DNA from: Austropuccinia psidii
Lineage: Eukaryota; Basidiomycota; Pucciniomycetes; Pucciniales; Sphaerophragmiaceae
Length of the DNA: 64,000 nt
Direction of reading: 5' to 3'
Assembly (NCBI GenBank): GCA_023105745.1
Contig: JALGQZ010000011.1
Span: 14,909,975 to 14,973,974 of the forward strand
Positions 558-40,715 of this stretch are shown one piece after another. Below the pieces are notes generated by a model. That model was given only the letters and a program-made list of their open reading frames with translations. It did no database searches and was not told where the DNA came from. How positions within the stretch are numbered: position 1 is the first letter of the stretch; each line of letters starts with the position of its first letter. The position numbers and the translations under genes are program-made.

Positions 558-2712
558 TGGCTGTAAACTCCTCAGTTCTCTTTTAGGTTAATTTAGTTAG
601 CACCAATAAATATCTGTCTTTGAGATCTTCAATAAGTTTCCAAAACTCATGGGTTGCTGAATTGAACTATTGATTTTATATGAGAGGTCAACTTTGAAAT
701 TTACACTCAGTTTTGGTTCTGAGCCAGAATACTTTTTATTTTTTCTTATCCTTCTGCGATATAAATGATACATTATGAAAGAAGGGAGCTTCCGTTTCAG
801 ATGAATACTATTATGCGTTGTTTGGCCTAGTTTTTCATCTTGTGAGGGTTGTATTTCAATATTATTACTCATTTTATTGATGTGTCATTCTTATGCCAGT
901 GTTTTGAGTCAGAGGCTGACAAATTTTTTTCACTTTATCTACTTTCTATATGTAATGGGTTTCTCAATTTGATTATTCAAGTTATGAATTATAAGTAAAA
1001 ATATTATCTCATTTTCTCATTTTGTAAAAAAAACCTGCATATTTATTAAGTTTTTTCTCCAATTAATAGACACATGTCAATATATTTATTCTTCTGTAAC
1101 ATGAAATTGAGTTTATGCAAATATTGTCATTTTGTGAATTGGTTATTTGAAATTTTCAAGTTCTTTTTTGGATCAATAACTTATCTTACACTTTTCAAGA
1201 GCTACAAGGATTCAAATTGATAAGATACACTATTTTGAATGGAAAGGAAACTCAAATATTTAATACTTCCTACTTTAAAGTGTTTTCTCACAACTGGGTA
1301 ACATTAAGAAAGAAAAGAACCCCACTATGTCTTATTATTTAATCTTTTTCCATTTTGTGAAATACTATTCTTTTATTTTTATTGCTTAAAGGGGTCAGAG
1401 TTGAAAAAAATACATAATCAGGTAACAAAAAGTTGAATAGTATAATTAGTAAGAGTATATAGGGAGTGCCCTGCGCCAATGTCAAGAGAAAAATGAAGAA
1501 GGAAACTTGAATTGGGTGAAATATTCAACAAAACACTCTAAAAAAAAAAGCTTTCTTGAAAAATAATTTTCTCATGAAAGAGGCCTTTCATGTAAAACCA
1601 ACCTGTAAAACATTCTTTTTATAGAGAACCTTTTTCCAACATGTTTGTTTCCTTATTTTTGGATCTCACCAATCAGAAAGTACAGCATATTTCTTTTTCC
1701 ATTAATCGATAGTCGAAATTCCTTCACCCAACCTCTCTCACCTCCAGCCAATTTCTCAATCCTTTCTCCTTTCTTTGCAAATTTTTCCTCTTTATGCAGT
1801 ATTTTTTCTTATTCCACAACAGTCATTCGAGTGCATATGTTTTTTTCTTTCAATATTCCTCATCTTGGTGTGAGGAAATACTCTCTATGGAATTATTCCT
1901 TTTGAAAAAATGCAACATTCCCAGAACCCCGCATAATCCCTTCCATTCCAACTTAACAATTTCTTTAAATGAGAAAAGGATTATAAAAAAAAAAGGTCAA
2001 AAATTACCCATAATGGGTGTAACTCCCTTGCGTCTTCAGATAGAATCATTGATCTGGGTGTTTTTGATATATCAATTGTATTACTGATGACTCCCGCCTG
2101 TACTATGAGGGTGTTTTTTAGAAGACATTCCGATTCTAGATTTGCTTTCCAAAATCTGAATAAAGGAGGTGGAAGACGCATGAGGTTTTACTTTCAATAA
2201 GTTGATTCGATATAATATGAAAGAAGCGCTCTGAGAAACCTGGCCTCTATTGAGCCTATTGGCGAATCTATTTAAGGCCAGAAATACTGAGATGTGTTGT
2301 TTTCAGGGGTGATTCAGTCAAAATTTCCTTGGATTTTAAATCTGAACTTTAATGAAGGTATTTTGTTGGTGATTTTCCTATTAACGAAGATATTGAAATT
2401 TTTTCTTAGATTTTATAACAAATTAAGATAAAGCTTGTAGAATTGAGCTCAGTACCTGATAGCTTTTTGCGCAATTTTCATCAATGCTAGGTAAATGAAG
2501 GAGTCGAGGGTGATGTTCATTTTTCATCCTTCAGTTTTCTTATATGGTCGGGTTCAGAGATATTAAAAGAGCTGGGAAGACAATGCTGATAGTTCGACTC
2601 CTAAATATTAATGACCCCTTCCTTTCAATGTGTCAATCCAAATCTATAGCATTCAATAGGTGACATATCAGTAACCGAAAGGGGAATACTAGAAATAATC
2701 TGAGTTAGTTCA
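558..2712 (+). repeat. Duplicated locus, copy 1, left part (non-coding)
   Basis: This segment aligns along its length with 18961-21188, with scattered substitutions and small indels. Shared blocks include one near 610/19015 (CTTTGAGATCTT), one near 1640/20115 (TTTTTCCAA) and the final stretch before the tRNA-like start. I see no gene; the short open frames here are not conserved between the two copies. It forms the 5' flank of the tRNA-Asp-like gene that CACTA-1 splits. Confidence 0.7.
2699..2712 (+). tRNA. 5' part of split tRNA-Asp(GUC)-like gene, copy 1
   Basis: TCTGAGT is the 5' acceptor strand and TAGTTCA is the first seven bases of the D arm and A box. The gene then breaks off into CACTA-1 and resumes at 9565. 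The 5' acceptor pairs with ACTCGGA at 9650-9656, with one G-U pair. The uninterrupted relative at 30416-30522 shows the expected order. It cannot be functional in its split state. Confidence 0.7.
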
Positions 2713-4169
2713 ACGCGCCGTGCGCAAATGGCTGTCGTATCCTGGGCAACGATGCGCGGTCGTTTCTTGGATCGTTGTTGGTTCTCAAGCTTAACATTGA
2801 CCCGCTAACTTTTCAAATTGCTCAGTAATGCACCAACAGTACAACGAGTGTTCAATGTATTTTTTTGCTTTAAATCATCGCAGTTATTTTCATATTCAAC
2901 CAAAAAAAAAAAAAATTCACTACTCTTTTATTTCATGCAGACTTTAAAATAGAGGAAACAGAAGGAAATTTTCATTTTCTAAAATCATGTTCTTATTTGA
3001 TAAATCGCACAGAAAGAGGCTATCAAAACCATGATATTAGGAATGAAAAGCAAAGGGAAAGTATTTGATCAAGAACGTAAAAGTCAATTTGAAGGAAATA
3101 ACTAAAAAAAATCTGGAAGTTGGAAGAAAGCACTCACTTTGATTTTCTCCAACATTCCTCATTCTAATAATTCTTTTTGAAATATTCTATTCCAAATGGT
3201 GAGTTGAACCTTCCGATTTGGAGAATTCATCAATTTGATAAACTCAATGGTTTCCTCCCAATGTGAGCTTTGGTGGTAGGGCTTTTTGAAAGTGTAATTC
3301 ATAATGTCGTTTAAGCAAGATGATAAAAGAAATGAATATATATATATGATTTTCTAAGACTAGAAGGTATATAAAGAGGATCAAATGAACAATCAGCAAT
3401 ACGGAAGTAAAGAGTTGTGTTAGCAAATCTAAAAGAAATGAGAATGCAAACAAAAACAATATGTAATATATTGTTGAGCAAAAACATGGATATGTTAAAT
3501 AAATTATAATATTAGTTATGATTATTTTGACAAGCATTCCGATAATTATGAAGTGATCAGAGTGCCACAAATTAGATTTTTTGAAATGATGTTTAATCAA
3601 AAAAATTTTGAGGGAGACAATGAAGATTGTAGGATAAAATATTAGATTCCACTTATGAATGAAGTCAAAATTTTTACCCATACTCTTGTGTGCTCCAACA
3701 AAGAATTAGATCTATGGCTGAGCCAAAACAAAAGGAATCATACATCAATCGTGGTCAAAAAGGGCCACTTTGTTGATTGAAGTGAGGTTAAGCTCAACCA
3801 AAGCAAATATTTCCAATATAATTTGAAGCCTGGGCCAGCTCATTCAGAATAATTCTGTATTAAATATTGAGTGAAGAATATAAGTGAGCTTGAAAACATA
3901 TTGAGGTAAAGGAAAACATACCTTTTGAAAAGAAATGTTGGCCAATCTGAGTGAATGAGAATTATTACAAATAGGAGGACCTATGTGTTGATATTTCCTT
4001 TATTCAAGGTTTTGAAAAAATTCACGAGTCCTTTAACCTAGACTAAGTCTCATTCTAAATTTTCAATCAGGACAATTTTCTTCTGCGGAAAACCTTCTCA
4101 TTATCCCAAAATATTTCTTACAACGTCAAATTTCTTTTTTATTATTGATTAAAATAATAATATTTCTTC

Positions 4170-6019
4170 TAATGAATCTCAGCAGAATCCAGAATCTCAT
4201 ATCACTTTAACACCTGTGCTTATCACAGAGCTTCAGAAAAACCTTTCTCATAAAGATGACATGATGTATAATCTCCTCCAACAAGTAGAAGAAATGGAAC
4301 TTCAGATCCAAGAAAAATCACCATCAAACAACATCAAAAATAACAAGGTCTCAAAAGCACAAACTGATCATTCACATTCAATAGAGAAACCATAGCCATC
4401 TATAGGAAGCTCAAACTTAAATTCAACAAGTTCAAAGAAGAAAAAATTGGAAAAAAAAATCCAATCAAAAAAAAGGTATTCGCAAATAAGTCATCAAGTA
4501 AAAGGAAAATTCCATATCAAATGGTGAAGGATAATCAACCTGCTGGATTTGAGGATACCAAGGTTTGAATCATCTTAATTTATGATGTTTTTAGGCTTCA
4601 TGACTAACGCATTGTCTTTTTTTAGGAAGCCTTCTATACACATATAAAACTTCTATGTAGTATGATTGAGAAGGAAGACGTTCCATTGGCCCCTGATCCT
4701 GCGCAATGAGTTATATTCTCACAAAGATTTTCAAATTCCAAACAGGTTGAATCAGCCATAGCAGGTGATGTACCTCTTTTAGTCCCATTAGATAGATTTG
4801 AAACTTTTTGTGGACTCAAAGGTCAAAGAACAAAAGTTTGGAAGCATTTTCTTAACTTATCTGACTTCCTAATTCAATATGTGCAAGTCTCGTTATCAAA
4901 TCTGGGCAATTTCAAGTGGGAACCAAATTTTGATGAGCAGCCAGACTCAATCTACAATGAAGCATGTCAGATTAGTGCACTTCAAAAATTCAGGCAGCTT
5001 GTTGTCGGTGGTTCTTACATGTTTATGAACATCAACAAAGGTTATGTTAATGATCTGCATCTCCTGACACAAACATATGACCACTATGTCCATTTTTACA
5101 TGGCTAGTATTTATTGTAAGGAGGAAACTGAAAAAGGAAAGTGTCGCAAACAAAAAGAGATGGTCTTACTTCAGAAAGGTCGCGAAAGGTAAACTATTAT
5201 CAGTCATATATTTCTGTGGTAATAATGTGACTAAGCTTGATTTGATAGTTGCGAAATATACAGTACAAGTTTTCAGTTAGCAATGATTTCCCAAAACAAT
5301 ACCAGAGAATTTTAAATCCAGTACAGGCTCACAGTGATGATGAATTCTATTCAAAAAAGGAATTTTACATTTCTCAATGACTTCCTTTCCAATCAGAAGC
5401 AGCCAACATATTCTTTTGCAAGCTAGATGAAAAAATCAAAGCTACAAATGATGCCAAAAACCATTCAACTAATCCAAGAACCCAAGTACACATTAAAGAC
5501 CCACCTTTGACACATTTCCCCAAAGCACCTGAAGGCCTGCCTTTGGACTTTTATGATCCTAAATGGTTCAACTCAAAGCTTCCAGCACAAAGGAAGAATT
5601 TGGCCGATGTTGGAACTGTGGCATTTCTAAAAGATCCAACAGACTCACTTGAGTTCAAAGTTGATGATGAAAGACTTGGCAATAAACGTTTCACTGATCA
5701 GAACTGGGACCGTGCAACAAAGAAATACAGTTTAGATTTTCTTGCTGAACAAGAATTGGACGCCAATGAACAATCAAGCAATGAAGAGCCTGACCATGGT
5801 GAGAGTTTCAGCCTTGAAATAACAGATCAGGAAGAAGAAAATGAAGAAGAAAAAACTAATAAAGTCCAAGAAAAATTTAACTCCAATGACAAGGGAAAGG
5901 GAAAACAAATTGAAAATGAGTATGATGAGTTTGATGACGATGCTATGGAAATTGAAACATCAAGGCAAAGTGGTTATGTTGGTGGGCTGACTGAGGAAGA
6001 ATGGAATGCATGGCAATAA
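4170..6019 (+). pseudogene. CACTA-1 partner gene (unknown function), broken
   Basis: This is homologous to the genes at 21872-23725 and 39838-38011. There are three exons: about 4170-4565, 4625-5190 and 5280-6019, with GT..AG introns at homologous places. Exon 1 keeps the TELQKNLSHKDDMM-type coiled segment but no in-frame ATG. Exon 2 has an in-frame TGA just after the APDPAQ motif; exon 3 has one just before LPFQSEAAN. Conserved parts are PDSIYNEACQISAL, YDHYVHFY, AHSDDEFY and LPLDFYDPKWFNSKLP, then an acidic tail ending EEWNAWQ. I do not recognise the family. Its place opposite the transposase suggests a second transposition protein (a TnpA-like role is inference only). Confidence 0.75.
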
Positions 6020-6378
6020 ATGTAGTACTGCATAAATAGACCATTTGTTTATTCTTATTACTTCTTATTATTTTCTCATCTTGAATATTGTAAATATGTT
6101 TTTGATACTTTGGGATGTGAATGACTGGAATTATACTTCTTTCTGAAAGATATTGAGACCATCACTTGTCTTTTAAATACAGATGTCAAATGCCTTAATC
6201 CACATCTAAAACAAATCCCTTCTGGTTTTGTTAATTAATCTTAATTGATCTATTTTTATTTAAATTATATCAAAAATATTTCTAAGATATTGATAGAGTA
6301 TATTTTAAAGTAATTTTTTCAATGGTAAGATAATTCTAAAATTTGAAATGATACAAAAAGGCAGAATACTTTATATAT

Positions 6379-9271
6379 TCAATTTATTTCCATTTCAATT
6401 GACTCATAATTAAAATGAAAGTTTTGTTTTATGGAATCTATCCAACGTAAAAGGAATGTAGGCTTTATTTGACCCAATGACCATTCAAGGAGGGATTGGT
6501 AGGCCACAGGCATTACTGAATCTGAATATATAAATTCATTTCCAGAAAGGTTTATCTGCATTAAATTCAATTTTTTAAAAAGCCCAATTAAACCACTATC
6601 CAACTCCACTTCCTTTCCTCAAAAGACTTTAAGCAAAGTTAAATTTTGGTCAGTCAGTTCAAATATCTCTGAAACCTTACCATAACGCTTTTCTCCATTG
6701 ACTAAGTACTCAATCATATTGTTTGGATGTTTTTTTGATATTTAAAATCCTCCATTGCAGCTCAATGTTTGCAGTTCTTGAGCCTCGTTTAATAGAACTG
6801 GTGCTTTTTCAGGATGCGGAACCAGTGATAAGGCCTTAATTCAGCCTCTTTCTTCTGACAAAAACTCAAGATACAATCATAATCTCTCCTTCCAATTTGA
6901 TATTTCTTACTAATCCTTTTTTTTTGTTCAGGTTTTTCACAATATACCCCATCTTTAACTTAAAATCGTTGAATTTTGCAAAATTGTTTTAGTAGGCAGC
7001 TTCAAAAATTCCCTATAAAAACAAATTAAATTACAAATCAATAGTTTTATCTTCATTCCTGAAAAATACACCAAACATACTCAAACTGGAGTTTGTATCA
7101 AGCTTTTGCAACTTTCCAATGAGCCTCTCTCCGGGAAATTCTGAAACTGCCATTAAAGGCCCCCACCATCTCATTTGCTCAGGCATATGAAGAGCATACT
7201 GATTATTTGGAAGAACCCTTTTATTTGAGAAGAGGCTTGCTGAAGTTTGTGTGTATGTGTTGTATTCTCTTTGAAAACTAATCGCATCATCCTCTTTATA
7301 TGATTTTGAGCTTACAATATTGGTACATTGAATTAAATAACCCAGATTCTCAAGGACAATTTGATAGCAAACCATATATTCATTGGATGTTTGAAATTGT
7401 AACAAGGTGTCTAAAAAAATTAATGGAAGGTAAATTGAAAACAATGAATGCCATTCACTAGCTTTTAGCTTTCCGTTCTTTGCTATCCCAATTCGTTTAG
7501 GCATTGGAGTTATTCCTGTTGGTACAACAGCTTCTCCAATTGTACAAAGAAGCAATTTCTTGAATCCATCACTGAAAAATTCACCTTCTTATTCATCTTT
7601 TGTTTCTAATATAGGCCCACCTGTAGTATCATCCTTGGTTTCCTCTGCGCTGTTCTTTTTGAAAATTCATTGAGTCCCCAATGGAATCAAAAATGGTGTT
7701 GTAAGACACCTTCATACAAGTTATGCATGAGACCAAGAACAACATTCTTTAATGGATTCCAGTATGGCAGCCAATTCAGCTCAGACCACCTTACTCCTGT
7801 TTTTTTTACCAATTTTTCACATTCTGTATTTTTGTTTTCATCATGCCATCTATGTGCAATGGCTAAAGTGTTGTTTTTGTTTTGGGGGAGGTCAATTTTA
7901 ATGTTAGTAATGTCTGCCTTTTTTGTATTACACCATGAGCATATTTTTGTTGCTGAGTGTGATGCAAACCCTGATACCTTGTGGGTAGCAACAAGATCTC
8001 CAATTAAAGCACCAAGGCAGATGACAATTGTTCTTCCTAGGGGAAATCAAAGTGTTTGAAATTTTGTAGGTCAATTCAGTTCTAGCATTTCCTTTACTAA
8101 AGGCTTAAAGATATTGTTTATTCTGATCATGTTTGGTTGATTTGGTGCAGGAAGCATACCTGCCATGAATGTGTATTGTGGTTTATATTGGACTGATGGA
8201 GGAAGGTTTAAGCATGTCAGTGCAAGGATTCCAACTGAGCTTTGTTTTCCTGAAATCTTGTTCCCCAAAGGATTAAACCAATTAACAAAGAGTGAAAACA
8301 AAAGAAAAAGTGAGTTTCCTATCTTGCCCATGTCACTTCTAAAGCTGTTCCATGAAGCCAAATGACAATAATCAACTACATCAGTTGAGTTTGGAACCAA
8401 GCTTTGTGGCCATTCTTCAATAAATGATTCCACTTCAGGTAAGATTAAGAACTATTCCAACCACTCTGCAAATGATTGGCTGGCAAATACACTTATTGGA
8501 CGTTTTTGTTTTATACGGTTCTTTTTTATACCCCACTGTTCTTTGAAGATGGTGTCAAGATGTTCCAGTACTAGCAGATCTCTCGGCTCAAAAAGGTCAG
8601 CCCCGCATATCAAAGAATCCAGAGTAGCTTGATATTTGCATTCTGATGGTGCAAAATCTATATTGTAAAGCGAGTAGCAAGCTTGATAGCAAAGGTGATA
8701 GTGAATTTTTGCATCAAGCTTAAGGTGTTTCATTATTGTCCGGACGTCTTTTGAGATATTTTTCTTAATACCAATGGTTGGTGGATGCTTTCCGCAATTT
8801 TCAATAATGTATGAGATAAATTTGATTGCTTCTTGACATTTTTTCTGGCTAAGACCACCAATAAGATAAAGCCATGTAATAAAAAACCAAACAAAATCTA
8901 AAGAAATTTTTATCATGTTAGCTTGACTGGTTGTGAATTTAACAAATAAAACAAGAATGCTTATTACAATGATTAGTATTAACAGGACCATAGCCTCGGT
9001 TTTCTGATTGCTCTGAATCAGTAGTATCTTGAATATCAGTATCTCTCCTGGGGTCTTTTCTGTCTTGGCTAGTTAGGTCAGGGAATCCGTCCAGCAAAAG
9101 TCCCATAAGTTTGTTTTCCTTGCTCTGATTTATGGGCTGGCTATTTCTGTTCCAATGTCTTCGACGTGTGCTAGGATGTACATACCTCCCTCGACGGCTT
9201 ATACCTGAGTCATTGAGAAATTTATGATTAATACATTTGGTGCAAACACAGGGATCACATTTGGGTTCCAT
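6379..9271 (-). pseudogene. CACTA-1 Tnp2-type transposase, broken
   Basis: The start at 9271 gives an N-terminus with a CDPCVCTKC cysteine cluster, then a STRRRHWN motif. An intron near 9000 is followed by WLYLIGGLSQKKCQ, a CYQACYSLY region, NWFNPLGNK (where other copies have DWFNP), ILALTCLNLPPS, GNKDLVATHK-like and CSWC-like stretches, and HNLYEGVLQHHF. The C-terminal part has TPMPKRIGIAKNGKLKASEW, WWGPLMAVSEFPGERLIG and a final VAYQSLLEWSLGQI. Defects include a TAG replacing a Trp codon near 8450, a TGA after HHF near 7674 and several frameshifts, so no contiguous product is possible. The order matches Tnp2/Transposase_21 proteins of CACTA elements, which cut and rejoin DNA with a DDE active site. 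Confidence 0.8.
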
Positions 9272-9564
9272 TCTTAGTTGATGGGTAACCACAAATACTA
9301 AGAATTTGACAAGGTATAAAAAAGCAAGATAGAAATTTACAATAATAAACCAATTTGTATAGAGCAATAGAAAAAATATTAACCATGAAATCCTAAGTAG
9401 AAAGCTTTTGAAAGGCTTCTTCTTGTCTCAAAAATTCAAAGGAAAATTCATTGTTATTGATGAGCTGCCAATACGCTGAGGCATCATCGTTATGACTGAG
9501 TGAAACTTTTACCTGAACGACCGCGCATTGTATTCCAAAAAACAACGTGGGTTTTCTGCTAGTG

Positions 9565-18960: not shown

Positions 18961-21188
18961 GGCTGTACTCCCCAGTTTTGTGTTAGATGTATTTATGTAG
19001 AACCAATTAATACCTATCTTTGAGATCTTTAATTAGTTTTCAAAAATTATGTGTTTTCGCGTTGAATTATTGATTTTATATGAGAAGTAAAATTTAAAAT
19101 TTATGCTCAGTTTTGGTTCTAACCTGTAGAGTTTTTGTTTTTTCTTATCCTACTGGGATAGAAATCATACATTATGAAAAAAGTGAGCTTCCATGTCAGA
19201 TGAATAATATTCTGAGTGATTTGGACTAGTTTGTCATCTTATGAGTATACTTATTTGATATCTCTCTTCATTGTATTGAGATGTCATTCTTGTGCCCATG
19301 TTTTGAGGAGTGTTTTGAGTCAGGAGGCTGACAACTCTTCTTCACCTTATCTCTTGTCTATATCTAATGGATTTCTAAATTTTGTATCTTAAGTGAGCAA
19401 TTGTCAATCATAATATTATTCCGCATTTCTGATGTTCAAAATAAATAATTGCATCTTTTTTAAGATGTTCCTCCAATAAATAGACACATGTCAAGATATC
19501 AATTTTCCTGATACAAAAAATTGAGTTTATGCAAATCTTGTCAATTTTCAAATTGGTGATTTAAAATTTTCAAGTTCTTTTTTGGTTAAAAACTTAATCT
19601 TAGACTTTCCATTAGTTATAAGGATCGAATTTGATGTGGTTTAATCTTTTGAATGGAAATCAAATTCAAGGATTCAATACTTCGTACTTTAAAGTGCTTT
19701 CTCACAACTGCGTAACACTAAGAAAGCAAAAAACCCTACTATTTCTTAGCATTTAATCTTTCTTGGTTTCGGAAAAGATCATTCTGTTATTTTTATCGTT
19801 CAAAGGGGTCCGAGAACTTGAAGATTTGAAAAAACACATAATCGCACAACAAAAGGTCAGAGTATATAATTAGTAAGAGCATAAAGGGAGTTCCCTGCGC
19901 CAATTTTAAAATAAAAATAAACAAGGAAACCCGAAGTGTGTGAAATCCTCAACCAAACATTCTGAGAATCAATCTTTTCTTGAAAAATATTTTTCTCATC
20001 AAAGAGGCTTTTCACTCAAAAAGAAGTGTTCAAAACATTGTGAATTTTTTCCAACTAGAAAAAACCTTTTTTCTATAAATCTTTCTTCTAAAACATTCTT
20101 TTTATGCAGAACCTTTTTCCAAAATATTTGTCTTCTTATTTTTGGATCTCACCAATTAAAAAATACAGCATAATTCCTTTTCCTTTTATCAACAGTCAAA
20201 AATCCTTCACCCAATCTCTCGCACGTCAAGGCAATTTCTTCATTCTTTTTCATTTTTATTTGCCAATTTTTCCTCTTTATCCAGTATTGTTTCTTATTTC
20301 ACAAGATTCTTTTGGGTTCATATGTATTTATTTTTCAATATTGCTAATCTTGGTGTAAGTACATACTCTCTATGGAATTTTTCATTTTGAGAAGATACAA
20401 CATACCCAGAACCCTCCATAATCCCCTTCAGTCCACCTTAACGATTTATTGAAATCAGAAAGGGATTATAAAAAAGAAAAGGTGAAAAATTACCTATTAC
20501 GGGTGTAGCTCCCTTGTGTCTTCAAATAAAACGATTGGTCTGGAGGTTTTGATATCTCAATTGGATCACTGATGATTTCCGCCTGAACTATAAGGGTGTT
20601 TCTTCAAAGATATTCTGATTCTAGATTTGCTTTCCAAAATATTAATCAAGGAGATGGGGCGATGCATGAGGTTTGACTTTCAAGAATTGAATTTGATATA
20701 ATATGAAAGAAGCTCTCTGAGAAACCTAGCCTCGACGCAGCCTATTGGCGAATCGATTTAAGGCCGGAAAAATTTTCAGGGGTGATTTAGTGGTCAAAAT
20801 TTCCTTGGATTTTAAATCTGAACTTTGATCAAGGTATTTCGTTGTTGATTTTCGTATTAAATTTTTTTTTGAAAGTTTTCCTAAGCTTTTATAACAAATT
20901 AAGATAAAGCTTGTAGAATTGGGCTCAGTACCTGATAGCTTTTTGCGCACTTTTCATCAATGCTAGGTAAATGAAGGAGTAGAGGGTGATGTTCATTTTT
21001 CATCCTTCAGTTTTCGTATATGGTCGGGTTCAGAGATATAAGAAGAGCGGGGAAGACAATACTGATAATTTGACTCCTAAAAATTAATTACCCCTTCCTT
21101 TCGATGTGTCAATCTAAATTTATGGCATTCAATAGGTGACATATCAGTAACCAAAAGGGGAATACTAAAAATAATCTGAGTTAGTTCA
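18961..21188 (+). repeat. Duplicated locus, copy 2, left part (non-coding)
   Basis: This is the counterpart of 558-2712, ending in the tRNA-Asp-like 5' part. The last 150 bases (21035-21188) are repeated once more at about 30281-30429, in front of the tandem tRNA copy. No conserved open frame is seen. Confidence 0.7.
21175..21188 (+). tRNA. 5' part of split tRNA-Asp(GUC)-like gene, copy 2
   Basis: TCTGAGT (acceptor) and TAGTTCA (start of D arm and A box) are followed directly by the CACTA-2 terminus. The last three bases, TCA (21186-21188), are repeated at 30064-30066 and form the target duplication. Confidence 0.8.
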
Positions 21189-21223
21189 CACTACGCGCAA
21201 ACAGGGGTAGTTTGCTGCGCAAC
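21189..21223 (+). repeat. CACTA-2 left terminal inverted repeat
   Basis: 35 bases starting CACTACGCGC, notably GC-rich against AT-rich surroundings. They match the reverse complement of 30029-30063 at 34 of 35 positions. Confidence 0.95.
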
Positions 21224-21871
21224 CACAAGCAGATGTTTCCTGAGGGTGACAGTTAGTTTAAACCAGAAACTTCTAGTCTCTGAAGTTTCAGTTGTCTTTT
21301 CGTTCAGCATTTCCAGATCCTTTCATTGCCTTGAGGGCTAATTTGTATCCTTTCAAGTTTGATAGTCAATGTAAAACACAAAAAAGCTCCAATCGTCTAT
21401 GCTTTTGTTTTTTCACCAACACTCCTTTCACCCAAAGAGATCTTATCAATGAATCGTATTTTACCATTTTCAATGGCAATTCAATTCAAACAAAATCTCA
21501 TGACAGCTAATTTTTCTTTGTCGGATTTTTCACATCATTGAGAAGATTCACATTTCTTTGAAAAGCAAATCACTCATTTTACACAGCAAAATACTCACGG
21601 CTGAAGGGCAAAACAAACCCCATTGAACTTGCATGTGTATGTATTCTTATTACTGATCTCTTTCACCAAATTCAATCTTCTCTTCATAAATATAGCTGCT
21701 CATTATATTGTCCGCCGTCATTTCTTTTTCACTTTTACTTTCCAAAAAATCCTTTCCAGTTTCATTTACCCAATGTGGTTCTGGTTTCTCAAATTGTCAA
21801 TTGGCTGCATAGTCTTCGTCTTATTGAAGTTTATTTCAATAATTATTTCACTTTACAGTTTACTTCGACCA

Positions 21872-23725
21872 ATGAGTTTCGTCCCAGAACAGACACCAAG
21901 GCCTTCAAATGAGGACATTGTTATCCCCTTTATGCCTGATCTTCTCAATGAACTTCAACATAATTATTCTCACAAAGATCAAATTATATCTCAGCTTGCT
22001 GAAAAAGCTCAACAAATGGAAGTGAAACTACTCAGCAATTCCAAACCCACTCAGGAAACTTCAAACAAAAGCAAAAAAGCTCCCCGTAAATCAACTGATA
22101 AAAGTAATGCCAATTGTAGAACGTCTGCCAAGAAATCCAAAAGAAATTCACAAAGAAAATCAACAAATTGTCAACAACTAGATAAAATGAATTGTGAATC
22201 TAGAACTAGAAAAAATCCCCTTCAGATGCTTCAGGTGGATCATGAAACTGGGTTTGAGCACACAAAAGTAAGGGCTCATTTTTTTGCATAAGAAAACCAA
22301 AATGACTTGAATTGTTTCTCTAGAAAGCCTTTTATACGCACATCAAACTCCTTTGGGATCTTATTGTAAAAGGATCTGTCCCAGTAGCCCCCGATCCCAA
22401 TCATCTGCAACAATTTTATCAGCGTTTCTCTAACAGTAGTCAAATCAAATCAGCTATTGATAGTGATGGGCCCACCTTGATACCCATTGATGAAATCAAA
22501 ACCCTTCGAGAAGCTCGAGAACAACGTACAAAGATTGGAAATTACTATTTGTACTTGCCCGAGTTCTTGATCCAATATGTACGTAGCTCTCTGGCAAAAC
22601 TCGGAATTCCAGTATGGTCACCAAACCTTTATGAGCAACCGGACTCTGTATACAACAAGGCATGTCAGATTAGTGCATTACAAACCTTTTGCCTGCTGGC
22701 CATTGGTGGTGCTTATTCCTATCATAATATCAACCTTAGTTATGTCAATGATGTTGATCTCTTAGTACAGACCTATGATCATTATGTTCATTACTACTGG
22801 GCAGGTATTTTTCATAAGGAACAAAAGGAAGCTGGAGCTCATCACTTGATGAATGAAAGAAAGGCTACACAATCAGCTCGCCAGAAAGTATGTAATTTAT
22901 TTTTAAATTTGAACCAAAAAATTGCTTTATTAACTTGATATTCTAGCTACCGGATGTCAGATATAAATTTGCATTAAATCAAAATTTTCCAAAACAATAT
23001 ATGAGAGTTCTCACTCCTGTGCAAGCCCATAGCGATGAGGAGTATTATGCTCCAAAAGATATCTACATTGCCCGCAAGCTACCTTTTCGCTCTGAAGCTG
23101 CCAATACATTCATGCGTAAGCTGGATCAAGTGATTTGCAACTCTAATAAGGAAAATGGAGGAACAAATCAACAACGTCGTGTCAGAATCAAGAACCCACC
23201 AAATACTATGTTTACTAAAGCACCCAAAGGCCTTCTGCTAGATTTTTATGACAAAGTCTGGTATAACTCAAAACTTCCAGAACAAAGAAAAAATATTGCT
23301 GACTGGAAATGTGTTGCATTTTTGGAGGACCTCACCAGCTTATGCAAATTCACAACAGAAGATGAAAATCTTGGTGAAAAACGTTTCAACAATAAACATT
23401 GGGATGTCACAAGGAAAGGATACAACTTAGACTTCCTATCCATTGTCGAATCCAAATCAGAAAATGATGATGAAGACAAAGAGGATGATAGTGACTATGG
23501 TGAAAGTATTGAGTTAGAACTTGATAATGAAGATGAAACTCAAGACCAGGATGATGAAGATGACATTACAACAAGAAAAAAGGTGGGAAAGGAAAAGAAT
23601 GAGAAATTGAAGTCAATGACGATATTGAAATTGAGCTCAAAGATGAAGATATGGAAATTGACGCAACTCATAATTCCAACTTTATTGGGGGATTAACTGA
23701 AGCAGAATGGAATGCATGGCAGTAG
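21872..23725 (+). pseudogene. CACTA-2 partner gene (unknown function), nearly intact
   Basis: The start ATG at 21872 (MSFVPEQTPRPSN) fits the N-terminus of the copy at 39838. Exon 1 is 21872-22267, intron GTAAGG..CTCTAG; exon 2 is 22324-22887, intron GTATGT..TTCTAG; exon 3 is 22947-23725. Exon 1 has a coiled LNELQHNYSHKDQII segment and a Lys/Ser-rich stretch. Exon 2 holds the most conserved block, TLREAREQRTKIG..FLIQYVRSSLAKLG..PDSVYNKACQISAL..YDHYVHYYW. Exon 3 has AHSDEEYYAPKDIYIARKLPF, LLLDFYDKVWYNSKLPEQRK and an acidic tail. A frameshift near 23580, next to an A run, knocks out the last 45 or so residues; the expected GGLTEAEWNAWQ end lies in another frame at 23690-23725. Its role is unknown. 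Convergence with the transposase in all three elements makes a transposition function likely (inference). Confidence 0.75.
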
Positions 23726-24048
23726 TTATTAAGAAATAGGATTCTCCTTGTTTTGATGAGAAAAATAGTTTTAAATACGCTTTTTTGATCAGATTTTTTG
23801 TATATAAGATAGGGATATGTTATTTTGTGTTTTTCTAAAGGTTACTTTCCCCAAACAAAGAAAAAAACAAAAAAAAGAATAAACAATTGTTTGTATTAAA
23901 GTAGTACTCAAAAAAAACAATGCTTTCTAGAAAATATTAAAATGTATGTTTTTGTTAAGAAAAAAGAAACAATCTAGTTGGTTTGTTTATTCAGGAAAGA
24001 AACAAGAGTGTGTTGATTCTTTAAAAAAAATTAAGCAGATTTTTTGGC

Positions 24049-26150
24049 TTAAAAATAGGTAAGTGCTTTAAAAATAAAAAAATAAATATCAAATAAAAAT
24101 AAAAATAACAAGAAAATTAAAATTAAAATTAAAATAAAAAATAAAATTAAAAAGACAAATAAAAAAGCCAAATGAAAATAAAACTTGAAATTAAAACAAA
24201 ATTGAAAATGAATAAAAAAATGTAAATAAAAATGTATATAAAAATGAATATAAAAATGCAAATACAAATAAAAGAAAATGGCGAATGAAAATCAACAAGT
24301 AAAGGATGAAAATAAATACAGAACACTGCATAGAAATAATGAAGACAATTAGAAATATGATCAAAGAAAAAGATATGTCATAACTTAATATAAAAACATG
24401 AAAATGAATAAAAATAATATAAGAAGAAATCATATTGCTTTTGAAAAATTTACAAATAAATAAAAATCTCAATATTAAATAACAAACATATAAATGAATG
24501 AGGATATTGATCTTTCATTTTTTTATTATTTGTAACTTTTTATCTTTTATATTTCACTATTTTTGGGGTTTTATTGTCTTTTTTTGAACTCTTGTATAAA
24601 TAAATTACAATAAATATATAGAAATAGTTGTAAACAATTATGGCTTGACAAAGATTAATGAAAAAAGAAGAGATAAAACTTCAAAACTAACAATAGGTAA
24701 ATAATGAGAATGATATTTAAATAAAAAGAAATAAATGACTAGAAATCATTAATATTAAACATAAAGAAATATTGTAAAAATGAAAATTCATGAGGAATAT
24801 ATGGAAATAAACATATAAAAATCCATAAAAATAGTAAAAAATGATGAAAATGAAAACAAATGAAAAAGAATAATCAGAATACCAATGGAAAATTGAATAC
24901 CAAGAATCAATCTGTAGAAGAATAAGCACCTTTACTTTATTTTGCTTTTTGATTTTATTTTATATTTCATTTTTGCTTTAGTTTTTCTCCATTATTACAT
25001 TCATTTTTTATTTTTGTTTATTTTTGTTTTTAATTTATTTATAATTTATTTTTAATTCATTGTGAATTTATTTTTCATTCAATTAAAATTCATTGTTGAA
25101 TTATATTTAATTTATTTTGAAGTTAATTTTAATTTATTTATAATTTATTTATAATTTATTTCTCATTCATTTTGATTTCATTTTGAATTTATTTATAATT
25201 CATATTTGAATTATATTTAAATTATTTTCAAATGAATTTTTATTTATTTTTGATTTAGTTATAAATTATTTATAATTTATAAATAATTCATATTAAATTT
25301 ATATTTAATCCAAGTTTATTTTCAATCTATTTGTGATTCATTTTTGAATTATATTGAATTTATTTTTGATTTAATTATAATTTCTTCTTAATTTATTTAT
25401 AATTCATTCATAATTCAGTTATAATTCATCTATAATTTATTCACAATATATTTATAATTCATATTTGAGTTATATTTAATTTATTTTTAATTTAATCATA
25501 ATTTCTTTTTGATTTATTTATAATTTATTTATAAATCATTTTTGAATTATCTTTAATTTATTTTTAATGCAATTATAATTTATTCATAGTTTATTTATAA
25601 TTGATTCATAATGTATTTATAATTCAATTATTATTTCTTCATAGTTTAGTTATAAGTGATTTATAATTCATTTTTGGATTATATTTAATTTATTTTTGAT
25701 TTAATTAGAATTTCTTATTAATTTATTTATAATTTATTCATAGTTCATTTATAATTCATTTAAAATTTATTCATAATATATTTATAATTTATTTATAATT
25801 CATATTTGAATTATATTTAATTTATTTTTAATTTAATCATAATTTCTTTTGGATTTATTTATAATGGATTCATAAATCATTTTTGAATTATCTTTAATTT
25901 TCTTTTAATGCAATTATAATCTATTTATAAATTATTTATAATTTATTCATAATGTATTTATAATTCATTTTTAACTTAATTATAATTTATTTATAATTTA
26001 TTTTTAATTTAATTACAATTAATTTTTAATTTATTTATAATTCATTGTTAATTCATTTGTAATTCATTTTGAATTCATTTTGAATTCATTTATAGTTCAT
26101 TTTTAATTATATTTAATTTATTTTTAATTTATTTTAATTGTTTTTTGCTC
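24049..26150. repeat. AT-rich low-complexity block between the convergent CACTA-2 genes
   Basis: From about 24050 to 24470 the plus strand is A-rich with AAAATAAAAAT-type units. From about 25000 to 26130 it is T-rich, made of reiterated TTTATAATTCATT/TTTTTAATTTA-type units of roughly 10-14 bases. Open frames here (for example on the minus strand at 24049-24472) are Phe/Leu/Ile-only translations of the repeat and are not genes. It probably forms the 3' ends of the two converging transcripts. Confidence 0.7.
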
Positions 26151-26385
26151 TTTGCTTTCTTACTTATCTATTTTCTTGATTTTTAAAGTGGATTTTTTAA
26201 TTTGAATTACTCATGGTAAGTTTTTCAATTTGTTTTACATCTTTCTATTGAGTTTTTTGTTCACTTATTAATTTAATAATTTTTTCAATTTTGATTTATT
26301 TACATCCTTTGCTTTTGATAAATTTTCCTGTTTCTATTTAAAAACAAACAACAAGCAACTATAAATGGGTAAGTGGGCATATCTA

Positions 26386-29320
26386 TCATTCACTATCTAT
26401 CTCCATCAAATCATCTACCGTCCCTGTTGGTTGTGGTTCTGATGTCAACTGACATATCAGATATGTTTGTTGTATTTGATTAAGTGACCATGCAGGAAGT
26501 TTACAATATGCTACAGGTCCTACAATGTCCGACTCCTTTATAATCTCTTCTGACAAGAGACGCACCTGGACCAAACCCAATCTCTCAAAAATACTCTTCA
26601 ACAAATTATCCAGTTCAACTGGGTTACCTTTTGCAACAATTATTAGTGTAAGTTCTATTCCTCCAATCAACTTCATTCTCTCCATAACCTGTCCATATAT
26701 TCTTTGACCATTGATTTTGTATTCAACCATATTGTTTGGACGTTTTTTTGATATCCTCCTTCCTTCAGCCTTTTCAAGAAACCTCAACCTTCTTATCTCA
26801 TTCATCAAGACTTTGGAACCTTTGGGATGTGGAATCCAATTGTATGGTCGCAAATCGGGGACCAGTTCTCTGCCGAAATTCCAGATATAACAATAACACT
26901 GACCACTAATGTGAGCTTTTTGACTTTGTGCCCGCGTTTTATTTTTTTGTGGTTGATTCAATTTTTTTTGGGCCTCCAGACATTGAATTTGGCAAAAACG
27001 TTTCATTAGTGAACAGCCCAACTGACCTACATCAAAGTAACAATGAGCTTTTTCAAAAAACTAATGATTGTACTTTGACTTACATACTTGACTTGGAGTT
27101 GGTTTTTAGTTTCTGCAAAAACCCAATCAGGCCCTCACCAGGGAACTCCAAGACTCCAATTAGAGGACCCCACCACATAAGCTGCTCAGGAATGTGAAGG
27201 GCATAATGATGGTTTGGAAGTATTTGCATTTTTGGAAAGATTTTTTTTGATGTGGCTGAGTAAAGCTGATATTTATTTTTGAAAATTTGGCACTCCTCCT
27301 CTTAACAACATTTGAGCTAACAATCTTTGTACATTTGACTAGGCAGCAAAAGCTTTCAATAACATCTTTATAGAAAAAGATGTCTTCTTCGAGATAATGG
27401 AACCGTATCAAGCTATCCAAAAAGGCCAGTGGCAAGTAAATGGAAAATAAAGAGCTCCACTCACTTGCGTTCAGCTTTCCGTTTTGTGCTGAACCCAATC
27501 TTTTTGGCATCGGAGTGATGTGGCTTGGAGCTACTACATCCATTATAGATGATATTAGCTTTTTCTTAATTTCAATGCTCAAGATACCTAAAATTGATTG
27601 AGGTTCTTCATTCTCATCATTTGGATCATTTGAAAACTCGGGTTCTTCATATTCTATCAAGCTCTTTGTACTGCAATTTGATAATCCATTTATTCCCCAA
27701 CGAAATCAAAAATGATGCTGTAGTATTCCTTCATACCAATTGTGTAGCACACCAAGCACTACACTTTTCACGGGATCCCAATATGGAAGGTGATTCAGCT
27801 CAGACCATCTTACGCCCACTTTTCTAGCTAAGCTTTCACGTTCTGTAATTGTTCTTGTCTCTTTTATTCGATAAGAAACAGCTTTTGTACTATATTGATC
27901 TCGAGGTCTTTTAATTTGCATTTTGTCAATATTGGCCTTAGTTGTTGTGCACCAGGAGCAGAAGGAATTTGCTGAATGTGACAAGAACCCTGCAGTTTTG
28001 GTTGTTGCAATTATATCACCAAGTAGGGCACCAAGTCTCACGTTTATTTTTTGCCCATTAGGAAACTGAAATGTTTTGATATTTACTGTTCTATATAGAT
28101 TGATTAAATCATCAACCAGAGGTTTCAAAACATTGCTAATCATTATTGTATTTGGCCGATCTGGTGCTGGTATGACATCAGGAAGGTAAGTGTATTTTGG
28201 TTTGTATCGTAATGATGGAGGAAGGTTGAGACAGGTGAGTGCTAGAATTCCTAATGATATTTGCTTTCCCAAAAGCTTATTTCCTAAAGGGTTGAACCAA
28301 TCAACGAAAAGGGAGAATGCAAGAAAAGATGTAACATTTTCTTCTCCTTTTTTTTCAAATATTTTTGTGTTTCCAAATTCAATTTTGTCCAAGCATTGGA
28401 ATGACAATAATCAATTTGCTCAGATGGCCTTTGGACCAGCTCTTTTGCACATGTTTCAATAGATAACTCAACCTCTGGTAAGCACATAAACCATTTCATC
28501 CAATCAACAAAGTTTTGGCTGATGAAAATACTTTTTGCAGCTTTTTTTTGATTGTTTACTTTTTGGTTCATTTCCGAATCAGAAGAAAAGGATCTGGGCA
28601 TTTTTCCAATTAATGTAAAGCTAAATTCTTCAAAACGTTCAACCCCACATTCTGGTACTGTTGTTGCAATTCGATAGTTGCATTCTGCTGGAGCTGTTTC
28701 TTCATCATAGAGGGAGTAACATGAAGTACAACAAACATGAAATTGCAGCTTTGAATCAAGATTTAGATGTTTAGTAATTGTACAAATGTCTTTGGGTAGG
28801 TTTTTTTCAATGCAAATTTCAGATGGTAGCCGACGTGACTGCTGTATGATGTAAGTGATGTGATTTATTGCTGCTTGGCATTTCTGCTGGCTGAGTCCAC
28901 AAACTAGGTACAACCACGAAATGAAAAGCAAAAGGCAATGTGATAAAAACCAAACAATGGAGTTTTAGATTTCAAAAAAAAAATTCAATAATGACATAGA
29001 ACTAATTGCCTTGATCATTGCTTTTTTTCCCATAAACTATGCTATCTGATTCAGTTGCTACACTGCTGGTATTGTTATTGGCTTCAATGTTTTTCTTTTT
29101 TTTGTTTCTGTCAAATGGATTCAAAAATTCTCGGAGTGCAAGTTGTGAAATTGATTGCTCAAATTCTGTATCAGCAATCTGTGTATTTTTATTCCAATGC
29201 CTTTGACGTGTGCTTGGATGCACATACATCCCTCAATGGGTTATGCCTTCTATATCAACAATCTTGTGAACAACACATGTTGGGCAAGTACAAAGGACAA
29301 TGTTGGGGGGCATTGCTAAT
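26386..29320 (-). pseudogene. CACTA-2 Tnp2-type transposase, broken
   Basis: The N-terminus from 29320 has a CTCPTC cluster, then an in-frame TGA at 29235-29233 where CACTA-1 reads CGA, then STRQRHWNKN. After an intron: WLYLVCGLSQQKCQ, CCTSCYSLYDEETAP, LFVDWFNPLGNKLLGKQ, ILALTCLNLPPS, RLGALLGDIIATTKTAGFLSHSAN, FCSWC, RWSELNHLPYWDPVKSVVLG and HNWYEGILQHHF. A TGA follows HHF at about 27708. Then come MPKRLGSAQNGKLNASEW, a frameshift near 27230, WWGPLIGVLEFPGEGLIG and a last exon (from 27021) ending VAYCKLPAWSLNQI..DDLMEIDSE. DWFNP, the GD of GDII and HNW are candidate positions for the DDE residues, by analogy with Tnp2/Transposase_21. This is the best preserved of the three N-terminal and central regions. 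Confidence 0.85.
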
Positions 29321-30028
29321 ATAAATAAGGTGAAGAAAATATCAATTCTTTTAGTTGAAAAAAGGTAAAAAAAAAATAATGATTTAATTTCTTATTGACT
29401 AATAATAACCTCAAACTTATAGTGTTTTACCCAAAAATACTAGGCAAAAGGGGTTAGTGAAGCTCATTTCAGAGCTTTTTTGAGAAGGGGTTTTCCTCTT
29501 GCTTGATGAGTATGTTCCCTTTGTTGTTTCATTTTAATTTTATCCCTTTGTGTTAATAGAATGCCTACTAACCTTTTACTTTAGCTCAATGTGATTGTTG
29601 TAGGTCTCATGCCAACATTCAATTTGGAATTGTACCTACTTTCACTTGAAAGCAGGAAATATCACAAAAGAAATATTCAATCTCAATCACTGTTCAGTTG
29701 GTATCATGCTGCACAGAATCATTATCATGTAAAACTTCTCAAAGCAATTCTTATCAAGAAACTATGAGATGCAGAAAAATAAAAAGTAGCTAGTATTTAA
29801 TTTAAAACTAGAAATTTTTTTCAGTTCACAATTCAGCTTTTAAGATGGTATAGTATCACCATTGCTTATAATTTCCATTCATAGCATATTTGATTAGGCC
29901 AACAAAGTTTATAATTGTTTCTGTAACAATAAAAGCAAAGAGTAAACTCAAAAAGAAGGATCTACTGAGTGTTAGTTTTTTTACCAGTCATTATTGCAAT
30001 GAAAACCACGTTCCTTCAAGTGCGCATA

Positions 30029-30063
30029 GTTGCGCAGGAAACTACCCCTGTTTGCGCGTAGTG
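30029..30063 (-). repeat. CACTA-2 right terminal inverted repeat
   Basis: 35 bases ending ...GCGCGTAGTG, the inverse of 21189-21223 with a single mismatch. They are followed at once by the TCA target duplication. Confidence 0.95.
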
Positions 30064-30159: not shown

Positions 30160-31010
30160 ATTTGATATCCTACCTTCTAACTATATCTGAGGAAATTTTT
30201 TTTGAAGGATATCTTGAGCTCATCTCAAACTTTTTCACTTAGCGGACTTGCAATTTCCAAAGACACTACTGACAAAATGGGTAAAGAGCATGGAAGACAA
30301 TACTGATAATTCCAGTCCTAGAAACTAATTACTCCTTCCTTTGAATGTGCCAATCCAAATTTACGGTATTCAATAGGTGATATATTAGTAACCCAAATGG
30401 GAATACTAAAAATAATCTGAGTTAGTTCAACAGTAGAATAACTGCCTGTCAAACTTGAATGGAAATGGGTGCATTCAAGAACTTGAAAGCTGTAGACGGG
30501 GTTTTGACTCCCTCACTCGGAGAGTTGATATCCTAGCTCCTAACTATATCTGGAGAGATTATTTTGAAGCGTGTGTTAATGGATCTCAGACCTTTTCACT
30601 TCACAAGCTTGCTCTTTCCAAAGACGCTACCCACAAATTGGTCTAAAACGTTACCCTTTTCATCTGTGTGACATTGTAATCCAATGGGTTTCATAAAGAA
30701 TTAGAAGTCTCAAAAATCACAATATCCCCTATTTTTGTAGTATTTCCGGAGAAGATTTCAGGCGTGAGGAATAAAAATGCCAAATTAATTAATAGTAAGC
30801 CTTTGATAACTAAAAAGAGCCCTTTTGGATAATTTGCTACCTTTTGGTATGCCAACATCATCAGTAGAAAGTTTCTTGAGTATTTGAAAAAGTTCTCAAT
30901 ATAATGTAGGATAGTTTTTGCTTTCATGAAGATTAAAAAGATCCCTGACCTTCTTTTCTTTAGCGTTCCAATATTCAAGACGTGATCACATAGCTACTTA
31001 TAATTCACGT
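30160..31010 (+). repeat. Duplicated locus, copy 2, tandem unit and right flank
   Basis: 30160-30280 is the 3' flank of the split tRNA. About 30281-30415 repeats the 5' flank seen at 21035-21174, and then a second tRNA copy follows. From 30523 the sequence again follows the 3' flank and matches 9660-10100. No gene other than the tRNA is seen. The stretch ends at ACGT, the target of the Ty3-type element. Confidence 0.65.
30416..30522 (+). tRNA. Uninterrupted tRNA-Asp(GUC)-like gene with intron, probably a pseudogene
   Basis: Acceptor TCTGAGT pairs with ACTCGGA (one G-U). The D stem is GTTC/GAAT, the anticodon arm is ACTGC with loop CTGTCAA (anticodon GTC), a 36-nt intron follows position 37, and the discriminator is G73. 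This is the undisturbed version of the site that CACTA-1 and CACTA-2 occupy. The invariant GG of the D loop is AG here, and the B box is altered (GGTTTTGACTCC), so transcription and folding are doubtful. Confidence 0.7.
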
Positions 31011-34211: not shown

Positions 34212-34218
34212 TGGTGTA
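34212..34218 (+). promoter_or_regulatory. Left half of a tRNA-like A box split by CACTA-3
   Basis: TGGTGTA stands just left of CACTA-3. With GTGG from 40644-40647 it spells TGGTGTAGTGG, a full match to the eukaryotic A-box consensus TRGYNNARNNG. The last three bases, GTA, form the target duplication. Confidence 0.6.
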
Positions 34219-34267: not shown

Positions 34268-34479
34268 TTCTTGAACCATTGCCAAAGCCCGCGCAATGCA
34301 TGTGCTTGTGGGCAGTCAGCAATACCCCAACAACCATACCTCCTGACTTCTACGCACCACCCCAAATTTACATTTAATTCATTTTTTAAAAATCAATTTT
34401 CTTTTTTATAAAAGTTACATTTTAGCTCTACTTTATTGTCAATCTTTTTCCTTTTTATTTAATACGTAAACTCAATAAA

Positions 34480-39838: not shown

Positions 39839-40591
39839 TTTGTTTTGAATTAAATCAAAAGAGTTATATTGTCTGGTAAGCGTTAAAAGATGAAAAGTAG
39901 TTTGAGTTTCACAACTCCCAAAAAAAAATTGTAGAGAAATAAAAAGGATATAATAATATTAATGAAATGAAATATTCGGTCAAATTTATTGAAAAAAGCT
40001 GAAAATTAATTATTTTTGGATTGTTTTTAAACCGAATTGAAAGAAGCTAAGCCAGTAGCTATCATTAAGTAAGAAAGAAAGAACTTCGATCTAGAAAAGA
40101 AAATTCCAAAGCTAAACCAGTAGCTTTTATCGGGGTATGAAGTAAAGAAATCAAACGTGAAAGTTTATGGGCAGAGGGGGAAGGAAGAATTTCGAGAAGC
40201 AACAACACTTTATATAGGGGAAATCAAGTCTCAAAACTAGAGTTACAGAATGAAAGGACTCTTGAAGCTAGTGGATCCTTTATTAGACATGCCTTAGTAT
40301 GACAAATCTTTTAACCACCCAAGATTTTCTATAAGATAAAGCTTATTTTCGATGCTTCTCAGTTTTTTTCAAAAGAAATTTCAACAGCTTAGTTGAATTG
40401 AAATATTACAATTGCAGTATGAAAGGAAGTACTCAAGGGCCTTAGAAATGCCTTAGTTGATAGAACTGTTTAATGATCCATGAGTCTTGACAAAGAAATT
40501 TCTTTTGTGCCTGATTGGAATAGTAAAGTTTTCACAAAATTTATTATAAAGGGCGCTTTTGTTGTTGATGATCTCATACACAAATTTTCAA

Positions 40592-40640
40592 GGGTCAGGA
40601 TGACGCCGCAGTTTGCAGCGTCAGGCCCTTGCCAGTAGTG
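40592..40640 (-). repeat. CACTA-3 right terminal inverted repeat
   Basis: 49 bases ending GCCAGTAGTG, followed by the GTA duplication. Confidence 0.95.
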
Positions 40641-40715
40641 GTAGTGGTTAGTGATTCTGGGTTGCTTTCAACTTTCATCAAATTTGAAACGGGTTCAAAT
40701 CCCCCCTCTGGTAGT
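40641..40715 (+). tRNA. 3' part of a tRNA-like sequence split by CACTA-3
   Basis: After GTA it reads GTGGTTAGTGATTC (D-arm-like), then a B box GGTTCAAATCC near 40690 that fits the consensus GGTTCRANTCC, then CTCTGGTAG as an acceptor-like end. With the left part it has A and B boxes about 50 bases apart, as in tRNA genes. I cannot fit a clean acceptor stem or a certain anticodon (a CTTTCAA loop would be Glu UUC), so it is better called a tRNA-derived sequence than a gene. Confidence 0.45.

What the first reader, a model, noticed from the sequence alone, without database searches (positions are those of the whole stretch)
2706..40647. Three CACTA transposons inserted at the same nucleotide of a tRNA A box
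CACTA-2 lies in TAGTTCA|ACGG and CACTA-3 in TGGTGTA|GTGG. Both are full matches to the pol III A-box consensus TRGYNNARNNG, and both are cut after position 7, with positions 5-7 duplicated (TCA, GTA). CACTA-1 sits at the same point of a second tRNA-Asp-like copy. The CACTA-3 target is a different, unrelated tRNA-like sequence, so the site shared is the A box and not a longer sequence. Targeting of tRNA genes is known for Ty1/Ty3, Dictyostelium retroelements and Dada DNA transposons. I know of no CACTA family that does so.
Basis: partly seen in the sequence, partly recalled or inferred. Interest (0 to 1): 0.9.

Follow-up and report, generated by a model that had tools for sequence, protein, structure and literature searches.

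The report
CACTA transposons targeting tRNA A boxes
In a giant rust-fungus genome, several families of cut-and-paste CACTA transposons insert themselves, often to the nucleotide, into the promoter box inside tRNA genes and tRNA-like repeats.

Summary
Largely confirmed, and broader than reported. CACTA-2 (21189-30063, TSD TCA) and CACTA-3 (34219-40640, TSD GTA) both split an exact A box after position 7. CACTA-1 (2716-9564) is in the same tRNA-Asp A box but 3 nt further on (TSD ACG), so 'same nucleotide' holds for two of three. The genome holding the window (1.015 Gb; best protein matches Austropuccinia psidii) was sampled. Of 50 rejoined insertions of four related terminal types, 40 have matching 3-bp TSDs, and 32 have a B box (<=1 mismatch) at tRNA spacing, against 1.2% of 3000 control windows. 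The rate is high in the C2 and C4 types (12 of 14) and lower in C3 and C5 (18 of 33). Sites align to the A-box consensus with the TSD at positions 5-7. Exact A boxes at junctions nearly always have a B box (11 of 12), those in background rarely (3 of 74), suggesting that the whole pol III type-2 promoter is recognised. Several insertions are demonstrably independent. A-box targeting is known for Dada DNA transposons; six literature searches listed no CACTA/EnSpm case. Guidance by TFIIIC is inferred, not shown.

The parts
2716..9564 (.). CACTA-1, degenerate ends; convergent companion ORF (+, pieces 4710-6019) and tnp2-like transposase pieces (-, 7031-9427)
   Evidence: Flank matches to the intact tRNA-Asp copy; ORFs; weak Transposase_21 match 20.5 bits, below the cut-off of 28.6
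2713..2715 (+). Left copy of the CACTA-1 TSD ACG, A-box positions 8-10 (right copy 9565-9567)
   Evidence: inferred, ends degenerate
2699..2715 (+). 5' part of the tRNA-Asp copy split by CACTA-1 (3' part 9565-9657)
   Evidence: Match to the intact copy
21189..30063 (.). CACTA-2, terminal inverted repeat CACTACGCGCAAACAGGGGTAGTTT; companion ORF (+, pieces 21605-23696) and tnp2-like transposase (-, pieces 26386-28964)
   Evidence: PF02992 32.5 bits, above the cut-off of 28.6
21186..21188 (+). Left copy of the CACTA-2 TSD TCA, A-box positions 5-7 (right copy 30064-30066)
21175..21188 (+). 5' part of the tRNA-Asp copy split by CACTA-2 (3' part 30064-30159)
   Evidence: Match to the intact copy; rejoined site called tRNA-Asp(GTC) by ARAGORN
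30416..30522 (+). Uninterrupted tRNA-Asp-like copy with intron
   Evidence: Rfam RF00005, 35.2 bits
34219..40640 (.). CACTA-3, terminal inverted repeat CACTACTGGCAAG; transposase (+, pieces 34481-37325) and companion ORF (-, pieces 38011-39958)
   Evidence: PF02992 25.2 bits and Plavaka 25.9 bits, both just below cut-off
34216..34218 (+). Left copy of the CACTA-3 TSD GTA, A-box positions 5-7 (right copy 40641-40643)
34212..34218 (+). Left half of the split A box TGGTGTA|GTGG (right half 40644-40647)
40692..40702 (+). B box GGTTCAAATCC of the CACTA-3 target

Best explanation
[quoted passage not shown] Shown: element ends and 3-bp TSDs, the insertion register in the A box, the B box downstream at tRNA spacing, several terminal types with the same habit, and independence of several insertions. 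Inferred: the integration complex recognises the promoter as a unit (A plus B box), most likely through TFIIIC bound there, and the transposase then picks a local triplet: TCA or TTA (either strand) in the strict C2/C4 types, various triplets over most of the A box in the looser C3/C5 types. The companion ORF protein is a candidate tether without evidence so far.
For: B box at 25-90 bp downstream in 37 of 99 ends, about 1 expected from distal flanks by my arithmetic. B box in 32 of 50 rejoined sites against 1.2% of 3000 controls. ARAGORN tRNA in 10 of 50 against 2 of 1500. Aligned sites give the A box. Exact A boxes near the TSD have a B box in 11 of 12 independent cases against 3 of 74 in background, p about 2e-10. 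TSD TCA/TTA or complement in 53 of 58 C2/C4 ends. Element and flank identities disagree. Six further tRNA-Asp copies cut at the A box adjoin sequences ending in GTG.
Against: A minority lack a promoter: 12 of 47 independent pairs have neither a B box at <=1 mismatch nor, by eye, a clear tRNA-like context or have only part of one; 10 of 43 unpaired ends show no tRNA-like half. One of three near-identical recent copies is in such DNA. The 12 exact A boxes come from only about seven distinct targets. The strict C2/C4 triplet fits direct sequence reading. One genome only, and no binding or expression data.
Confidence: 0.72

Rival explanations
1. Direct DNA-sequence recognition, as proposed for Dada: the transposase reads a degenerate motif around TYA|RNKG, perhaps longer than the A box, and needs no host promoter complex.
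For: Fixed register and triplet in the C2/C4 types (53 of 58 ends); insertions at TGA (TCA on the other strand) five nucleotides away in L079/L080; the C2 insertion L032 has TSD TCA without a convincing promoter.
Against: Exact A-box matches occur about 810 per Mb in background, yet of 12 at independent junctions 11 have a B box. Targets of many kinds share little beyond the A and B boxes.
Confidence: 0.2
2. A few insertions were amplified with their host repeats (tRNA-Asp array, retroelement copies), so the shared site is inherited.
For: True for some: L036/L038/L040 and L122/L123 have flank and element identities both 97-100%, and were collapsed.
Against: CACTA-3 and L105: flank 80%, element 94%. 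CACTA-3 and L119: 83% and 73%. CACTA-1 and CACTA-2: flank 85%, left ends not alignable at default settings, right ends 70%. Different terminal types sit in the same targets.
Confidence: 0.03
3. Random insertion followed by survival only in multicopy, dispensable DNA.
For: Most targets are repeated sequences.
Against: Survival cannot set a register within a few nucleotides of the A box in repeats whose homology runs on for up to about 770 bp of the outer flank compared; some targets look like single tRNA genes (L011, L091, L085).
Confidence: 0.02

Closest known systems
Dada DNA transposons (PMC3706591, PMC8869645; passages read)
   Same: DNA transposons inserted inside tRNA genes; several families hit the A box (nucleotides 8-13 in Perkinsus families), others near the anticodon
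   Different: Dada has 6-7 bp TSDs, no terminal inverted repeats and a transposase akin to MuDR/hAT/P/Kolobok; here 3-bp TSDs, CAC..GTG inverted repeats and a tnp2-like transposase
Rust EnSpm families of the CMCT clade (PMC12730594, passages read)
   Same: CAC..GTG ends, 3-bp TSDs, Plavaka-like transposase; found in Puccinia species and A. psidii
   Different: That paper is about TET/JBP genes; the word tRNA does not occur in its main text and no insertion preference was seen in the passages. Whether the present elements are the same families was not tested
Ty1/Ty3 and Dictyostelium retroelements (recalled; PMC5911963 seen only in a listing)
   Same: Integration directed to pol III genes; for Ty1/Ty3 through the pol III machinery (recalled)
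   Different: Retroelements, inserting beside the gene and not inside the promoter (recalled)
Helenus TRIMs with tRNA-derived LTRs (PMC10886601, passages read)
   Same: Known in A. psidii; may be among the tRNA-like repeats that are hit
   Different: They would be targets, not the inserted elements; identity not tested. No second copy of the target was seen in the 1.5 kb held on each side of L034/L048

Membership tests
CACTA/EnSpm (CMCT) | Terminal inverted repeats beginning CACTA or CAC | tested here: met
   CACTA-2 and CACTA-3 and the other types; CACTA-1 ends degenerate
CACTA/EnSpm (CMCT) | 3-bp target-site duplication | tested here: met
   Identical triplets in 40 of 50 pairs
CACTA/EnSpm (CMCT) | tnp2-type transposase (PF02992) | tested here: met
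   CACTA-2 piece 32.5 bits, cut-off 28.6; CACTA-3 piece 25.2 and CACTA-1 piece 20.5, below cut-off; relatives carry PF02992
CACTA/EnSpm (CMCT) | DDE catalytic residues and C(2)C, H(3-4)H motifs | not tested
   A CSWC motif is visible in the translations; the full set was not aligned
Dada | 6-7 bp TSD | tested here: not met
   TSD is 3 bp in 40 of 50 pairs
Dada | No terminal inverted repeats | tested here: not met
   Inverted repeats present at both ends
Dada | Insertion inside small-RNA genes | tested here: met
   likeness of behaviour only
Dada | Dada transposase | not tested
   No Dada profile was searched by name; the Pfam matches at E <= 0.1 for 10 window pieces were tnp2, Plavaka and one weak zf-like
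Pol III type-2 promoter as target | A box at the junction | tested here: met
   Consensus of 27 sites; exact in 14 of 50, <=1 mismatch in 33 of 50 within 4 nt of register
Pol III type-2 promoter as target | B box at tRNA spacing | tested here: met
   32 of 50
Pol III type-2 promoter as target | TFIIIC or pol III occupancy at target sites | not testable with these tools
   No chromatin or expression data

The most novel reading that the evidence does not exclude
A whole radiation of rust CACTA transposons has evolved integration guided by the assembled pol III promoter (TFIIIC on A and B boxes). It would be a cut-and-paste counterpart of Ty1/Ty3 targeting that acts inside the promoter, and near-identical copies suggest it has worked recently.
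Probability: 0.45. Interest if true: 0.88.

Novelty: new variant of a known kind. Interest (0 to 1): 0.78.

Why it matters
CACTA elements are textbook transposons, not known for small-RNA-gene targeting in the papers searched here. If they target pol III promoters, A-box targeting has arisen at least twice among DNA transposons (Dada and CACTA). It would give a natural harmless-site integration system to compare with Ty1/Ty3, and a possible reason why a gigabase rust genome tolerates many such elements. The association with A plus B boxes makes sequence reading versus promoter-complex guidance a testable question.

Tried and rejected
Rejected: the A box sequence alone as target; amplification of single insertions as the main cause; chance; the placement of CACTA-1 at the identical nucleotide. 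Led nowhere: viral-contig search for relatives, none; companion-ORF fold, mean pLDDT 45, so no fold search; Rfam around the CACTA-3 right half, no tRNA; occupancy counts for one target class, unanswered. ARAGORN with a lowered threshold gave hundreds of spurious tRNAs and was dropped. Limits: controls are distal flanks of the same loci, not random genome. The C5 pairs were chosen because both ends matched the pattern and, for most, one end was already held; 27 of the 96 ends were fetched. The A-box/B-box count (13 of 14 against 3 of 77) favoured hits with a B box when choosing among matches, so I recounted every exact match without that choice (13 of 14 in all pairs, 11 of 12 independent, 3 of 74 background). 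Of 150 transposase places scored (743 candidates) only the 30 best were held.

Full report
What is in the window. Three CACTA-like elements, each with a tnp2-like transposase region and a second, convergent ORF, lie at 2716-9564, 21189-30063 and 34219-40640. CACTA-2 and CACTA-3 have clear terminal inverted repeats and 3-bp TSDs (TCA and GTA). Rejoining the flanks gives TAGT[TCA]ATGG and TGGT[GTA]GTGG, both exact matches to TRGYNNARNNG with the TSD at positions 5-7. CACTA-1 has degenerate ends. Its left flank matches the intact tRNA-Asp copy through query position 16 and its right flank from position 15. The duplicated triplet therefore reads ACG, and the cut is three nucleotides downstream of that of CACTA-2.

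What the targets are. An uninterrupted paralogue at 30416-30522 scores as a tRNA in Rfam (35.2 bits, gathering 29), and ARAGORN reads the rejoined CACTA-2 site as tRNA-Asp(GTC) with an intron. The CACTA-3 target has an exact A box and an exact B box 48 bp after the TSD, but no program called it a tRNA. It lies between two 94%-identical LTR-like repeats (31011-32925 and 48153-50008), so apparently inside an LTR retrotransposon. Other copies of this repeat, with homologous outer flanks, are hit at or near the same place.

The genome. The window lies in a 1.015-Gb assembly of 84 contigs. The best protein relatives are Austropuccinia psidii MF-1 proteins, with others from Cronartium, Puccinia and several Agaricomycetes, so the host is probably A. 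psidii or close to it (inference). Pattern searches gave 41 ends for the CACTA-3 terminus (C3) and 58 for the CACTA-2 terminus, of which 38 are CACTA-2-like (C2) and 20 a related CACCA type (C4). A search with the first 91 residues of the CACTA-3 transposase, blind to target sites, scored 150 places of 743 candidates. Its 30 best loci revealed CACAACTGG/CACAGCTGG types, here C5. A pattern search found 96 such ends, some overlapping C3; 27 were fetched.

Test of targeting. A B box with at most one mismatch lies 25-90 bp downstream in 37 of 99 ends. The distal flanks predict about one (my arithmetic), and only one end of each element can face the B box; in the opposite orientation 2 were seen within 20-99 bp. 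Of 50 rejoined insertions 40 have matching TSDs; 32 have such a B box within 20-85 bp, against 1.2% of 3000 control windows. Allowing two mismatches gives 40 of 50, but 12% of controls, so I do not lean on it. After removing three duplicates the figures are 39 and 30 of 47. By type the B box is present in 8 of 9 (C2), 4 of 5 (C4), 9 of 16 (C3) and 9 of 17 (C5). ARAGORN of 50 rejoined sites tRNAs, three of the ten being duplicates of one insertion, and 2 of 1500 controls. The 27 sites with matching TSD and B box align to T-G-K-Y-[TCA]-G-T-K-G, the A box with the TSD at positions 5-7. Of 43 unpaired ends 15 have a B box, 18 match one half of a tRNA-like target in register, and 10 show neither. 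Among the 27 loci of the blind set with a readable transposase-side end (26 events), my reading by eye is 19 in A-box context and 7 not; of the 19, four (L113, L117, L118, L124) rest on the left half alone, and L115 among the 7 lies in a tRNA-Asp copy but outside the A box.

More than the A box. Exact A-box matches occur about 810 per Mb in background. Counting every exact match within 4 nt of the insertion register, 11 of 12 at independent junctions are followed by a B box, against 3 of 74 in background (Fisher p about 2e-10). The twelfth, L011, has a B box with two mismatches. These 12 come from only about seven distinct targets, so the p-value overstates independence. A motif-only mechanism would be expected to fill isolated A boxes. 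This points to recognition of the promoter as a unit, most simply through TFIIIC (inferred). C2 and C4 are also strict for the triplet (53 of 58 ends TCA, TTA or complements), so the transposase seems to have its own base preference. C3 and C5 spread over most of the A box, with a few at the tRNA 5' end or elsewhere.

Independence and age. Where two insertions share the host repeat, element and flank identities disagree: CACTA-3 and L105 80% flank, 94% element; CACTA-3 and L119 83% and 73%; CACTA-1 and CACTA-2 85% flank, left ends not alignable at default settings and 70% at the right end; relaxed scoring aligns their interiors at about 60%. Some are duplicates: L036/L038/L040 and L122/L123. 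Three elements 99.4-99.9% identical in the pairs compared, over the 1.5 kb held, sit in unrelated flanks on three contigs: two in tRNA-like A boxes with TSD TCA, one in DNA without a B box. That suggests recent activity. In the tRNA-Asp array seven of the 40 scored hits start at query position 7 or 10, as if cut at the A box. One belongs to the known L039 insertion; the other six were fetched, and six of six are preceded by a sequence ending in GTG, followed by TCA or by ACG/ACA. Only one side was seen, so their TSDs are not verified; the differing ends suggest further families (by eye). One target class matches a 24-nt pattern 275 times with up to 3 mismatches, at least one of these being an interrupted copy.

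Against this reading. Some C3/C5 sites (for example L013, L022, L089, L112, L154) have no recognisable pol III promoter; L032 is a C2 insertion without a convincing one. Ten of 50 pairs lack a matching TSD. All data come from one genome, the controls come from the same loci, and nothing shows that the targeted promoters are active or bound.

Literature. Dada DNA transposons insert in tRNA genes, including the A box at nucleotides 8-13 (passages of PMC3706591 and PMC8869645), but with 6-7 bp TSDs, no terminal inverted repeats and another transposase. Rust EnSpm families with CAC..GTG ends, 3-bp TSDs and Plavaka-like transposases were described in 2025 (PMC12730594, passages), without the word tRNA in the main text. 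tRNA-bearing TRIMs (Helenus) are known in A. psidii (PMC10886601, passages) and may be some of the targets. The A. psidii genome paper (PMC8063080, passages) has no occurrence of CACTA or EnSpm, and the listing gives none of tRNA. Six searches listed no CACTA/EnSpm case; I saw titles and abstract beginnings, and three of the lists were cut (25 of 371, 15 of 48, 15 of 26). Repbase and most subscription papers are not held.

Verdict. The targeting is real and general in the families sampled; the element class makes it new as far as searched. The behaviour is Dada-like, but by termini, TSD and transposase the elements are CACTA/EnSpm, not Dada. The odds of the promoter-guided reading were lowered slightly (0.5 to 0.45) on the recount, because few distinct targets carry the A-plus-B argument.

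Noticed in passing
30416-30522 and the genome places: tRNA-Asp-like copies form a dispersed array: all 40 scored hits (of 122 candidates) lie on C11:14.86-15.86 Mb or C16:12.56-15.19 Mb. Seven look cut at the A box.
   Followed up: partly
31011-50008: Apparent LTR retrotransposon with about 1.9-kb LTRs, 94% identical, interrupted by CACTA-3; it carries a tRNA-like A/B-box module in its interior.
   Followed up: partly
52476-57610 within 50059-59956: Copia-type element (LTRs 98.9% identical, 1079-aa pol frame with RVT_2) nested in another element whose LTR-like repeats are 93% identical.
   Followed up: no
24938 onward: 11-bp tandem repetition inside CACTA-2, between its two genes (family D1).
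   Followed up: no
33983-34081: Perfect 48-bp inverted repeat with a 3-bp loop shortly upstream of the CACTA-3 target.
   Followed up: no
L064/L051 (G000:C6:48085600-48097143): A CACTA-2-type element seems to abut the end of a CACTA-3-type element next to a tRNA-like half, suggesting repeated hits on one site.
   Followed up: no
L117, L118: C5 ends follow TGGCCGA and GTGGCCGAGTG, which look like tRNA-Leu or tRNA-Ser D arms (recalled); the other half was not seen.
   Followed up: no
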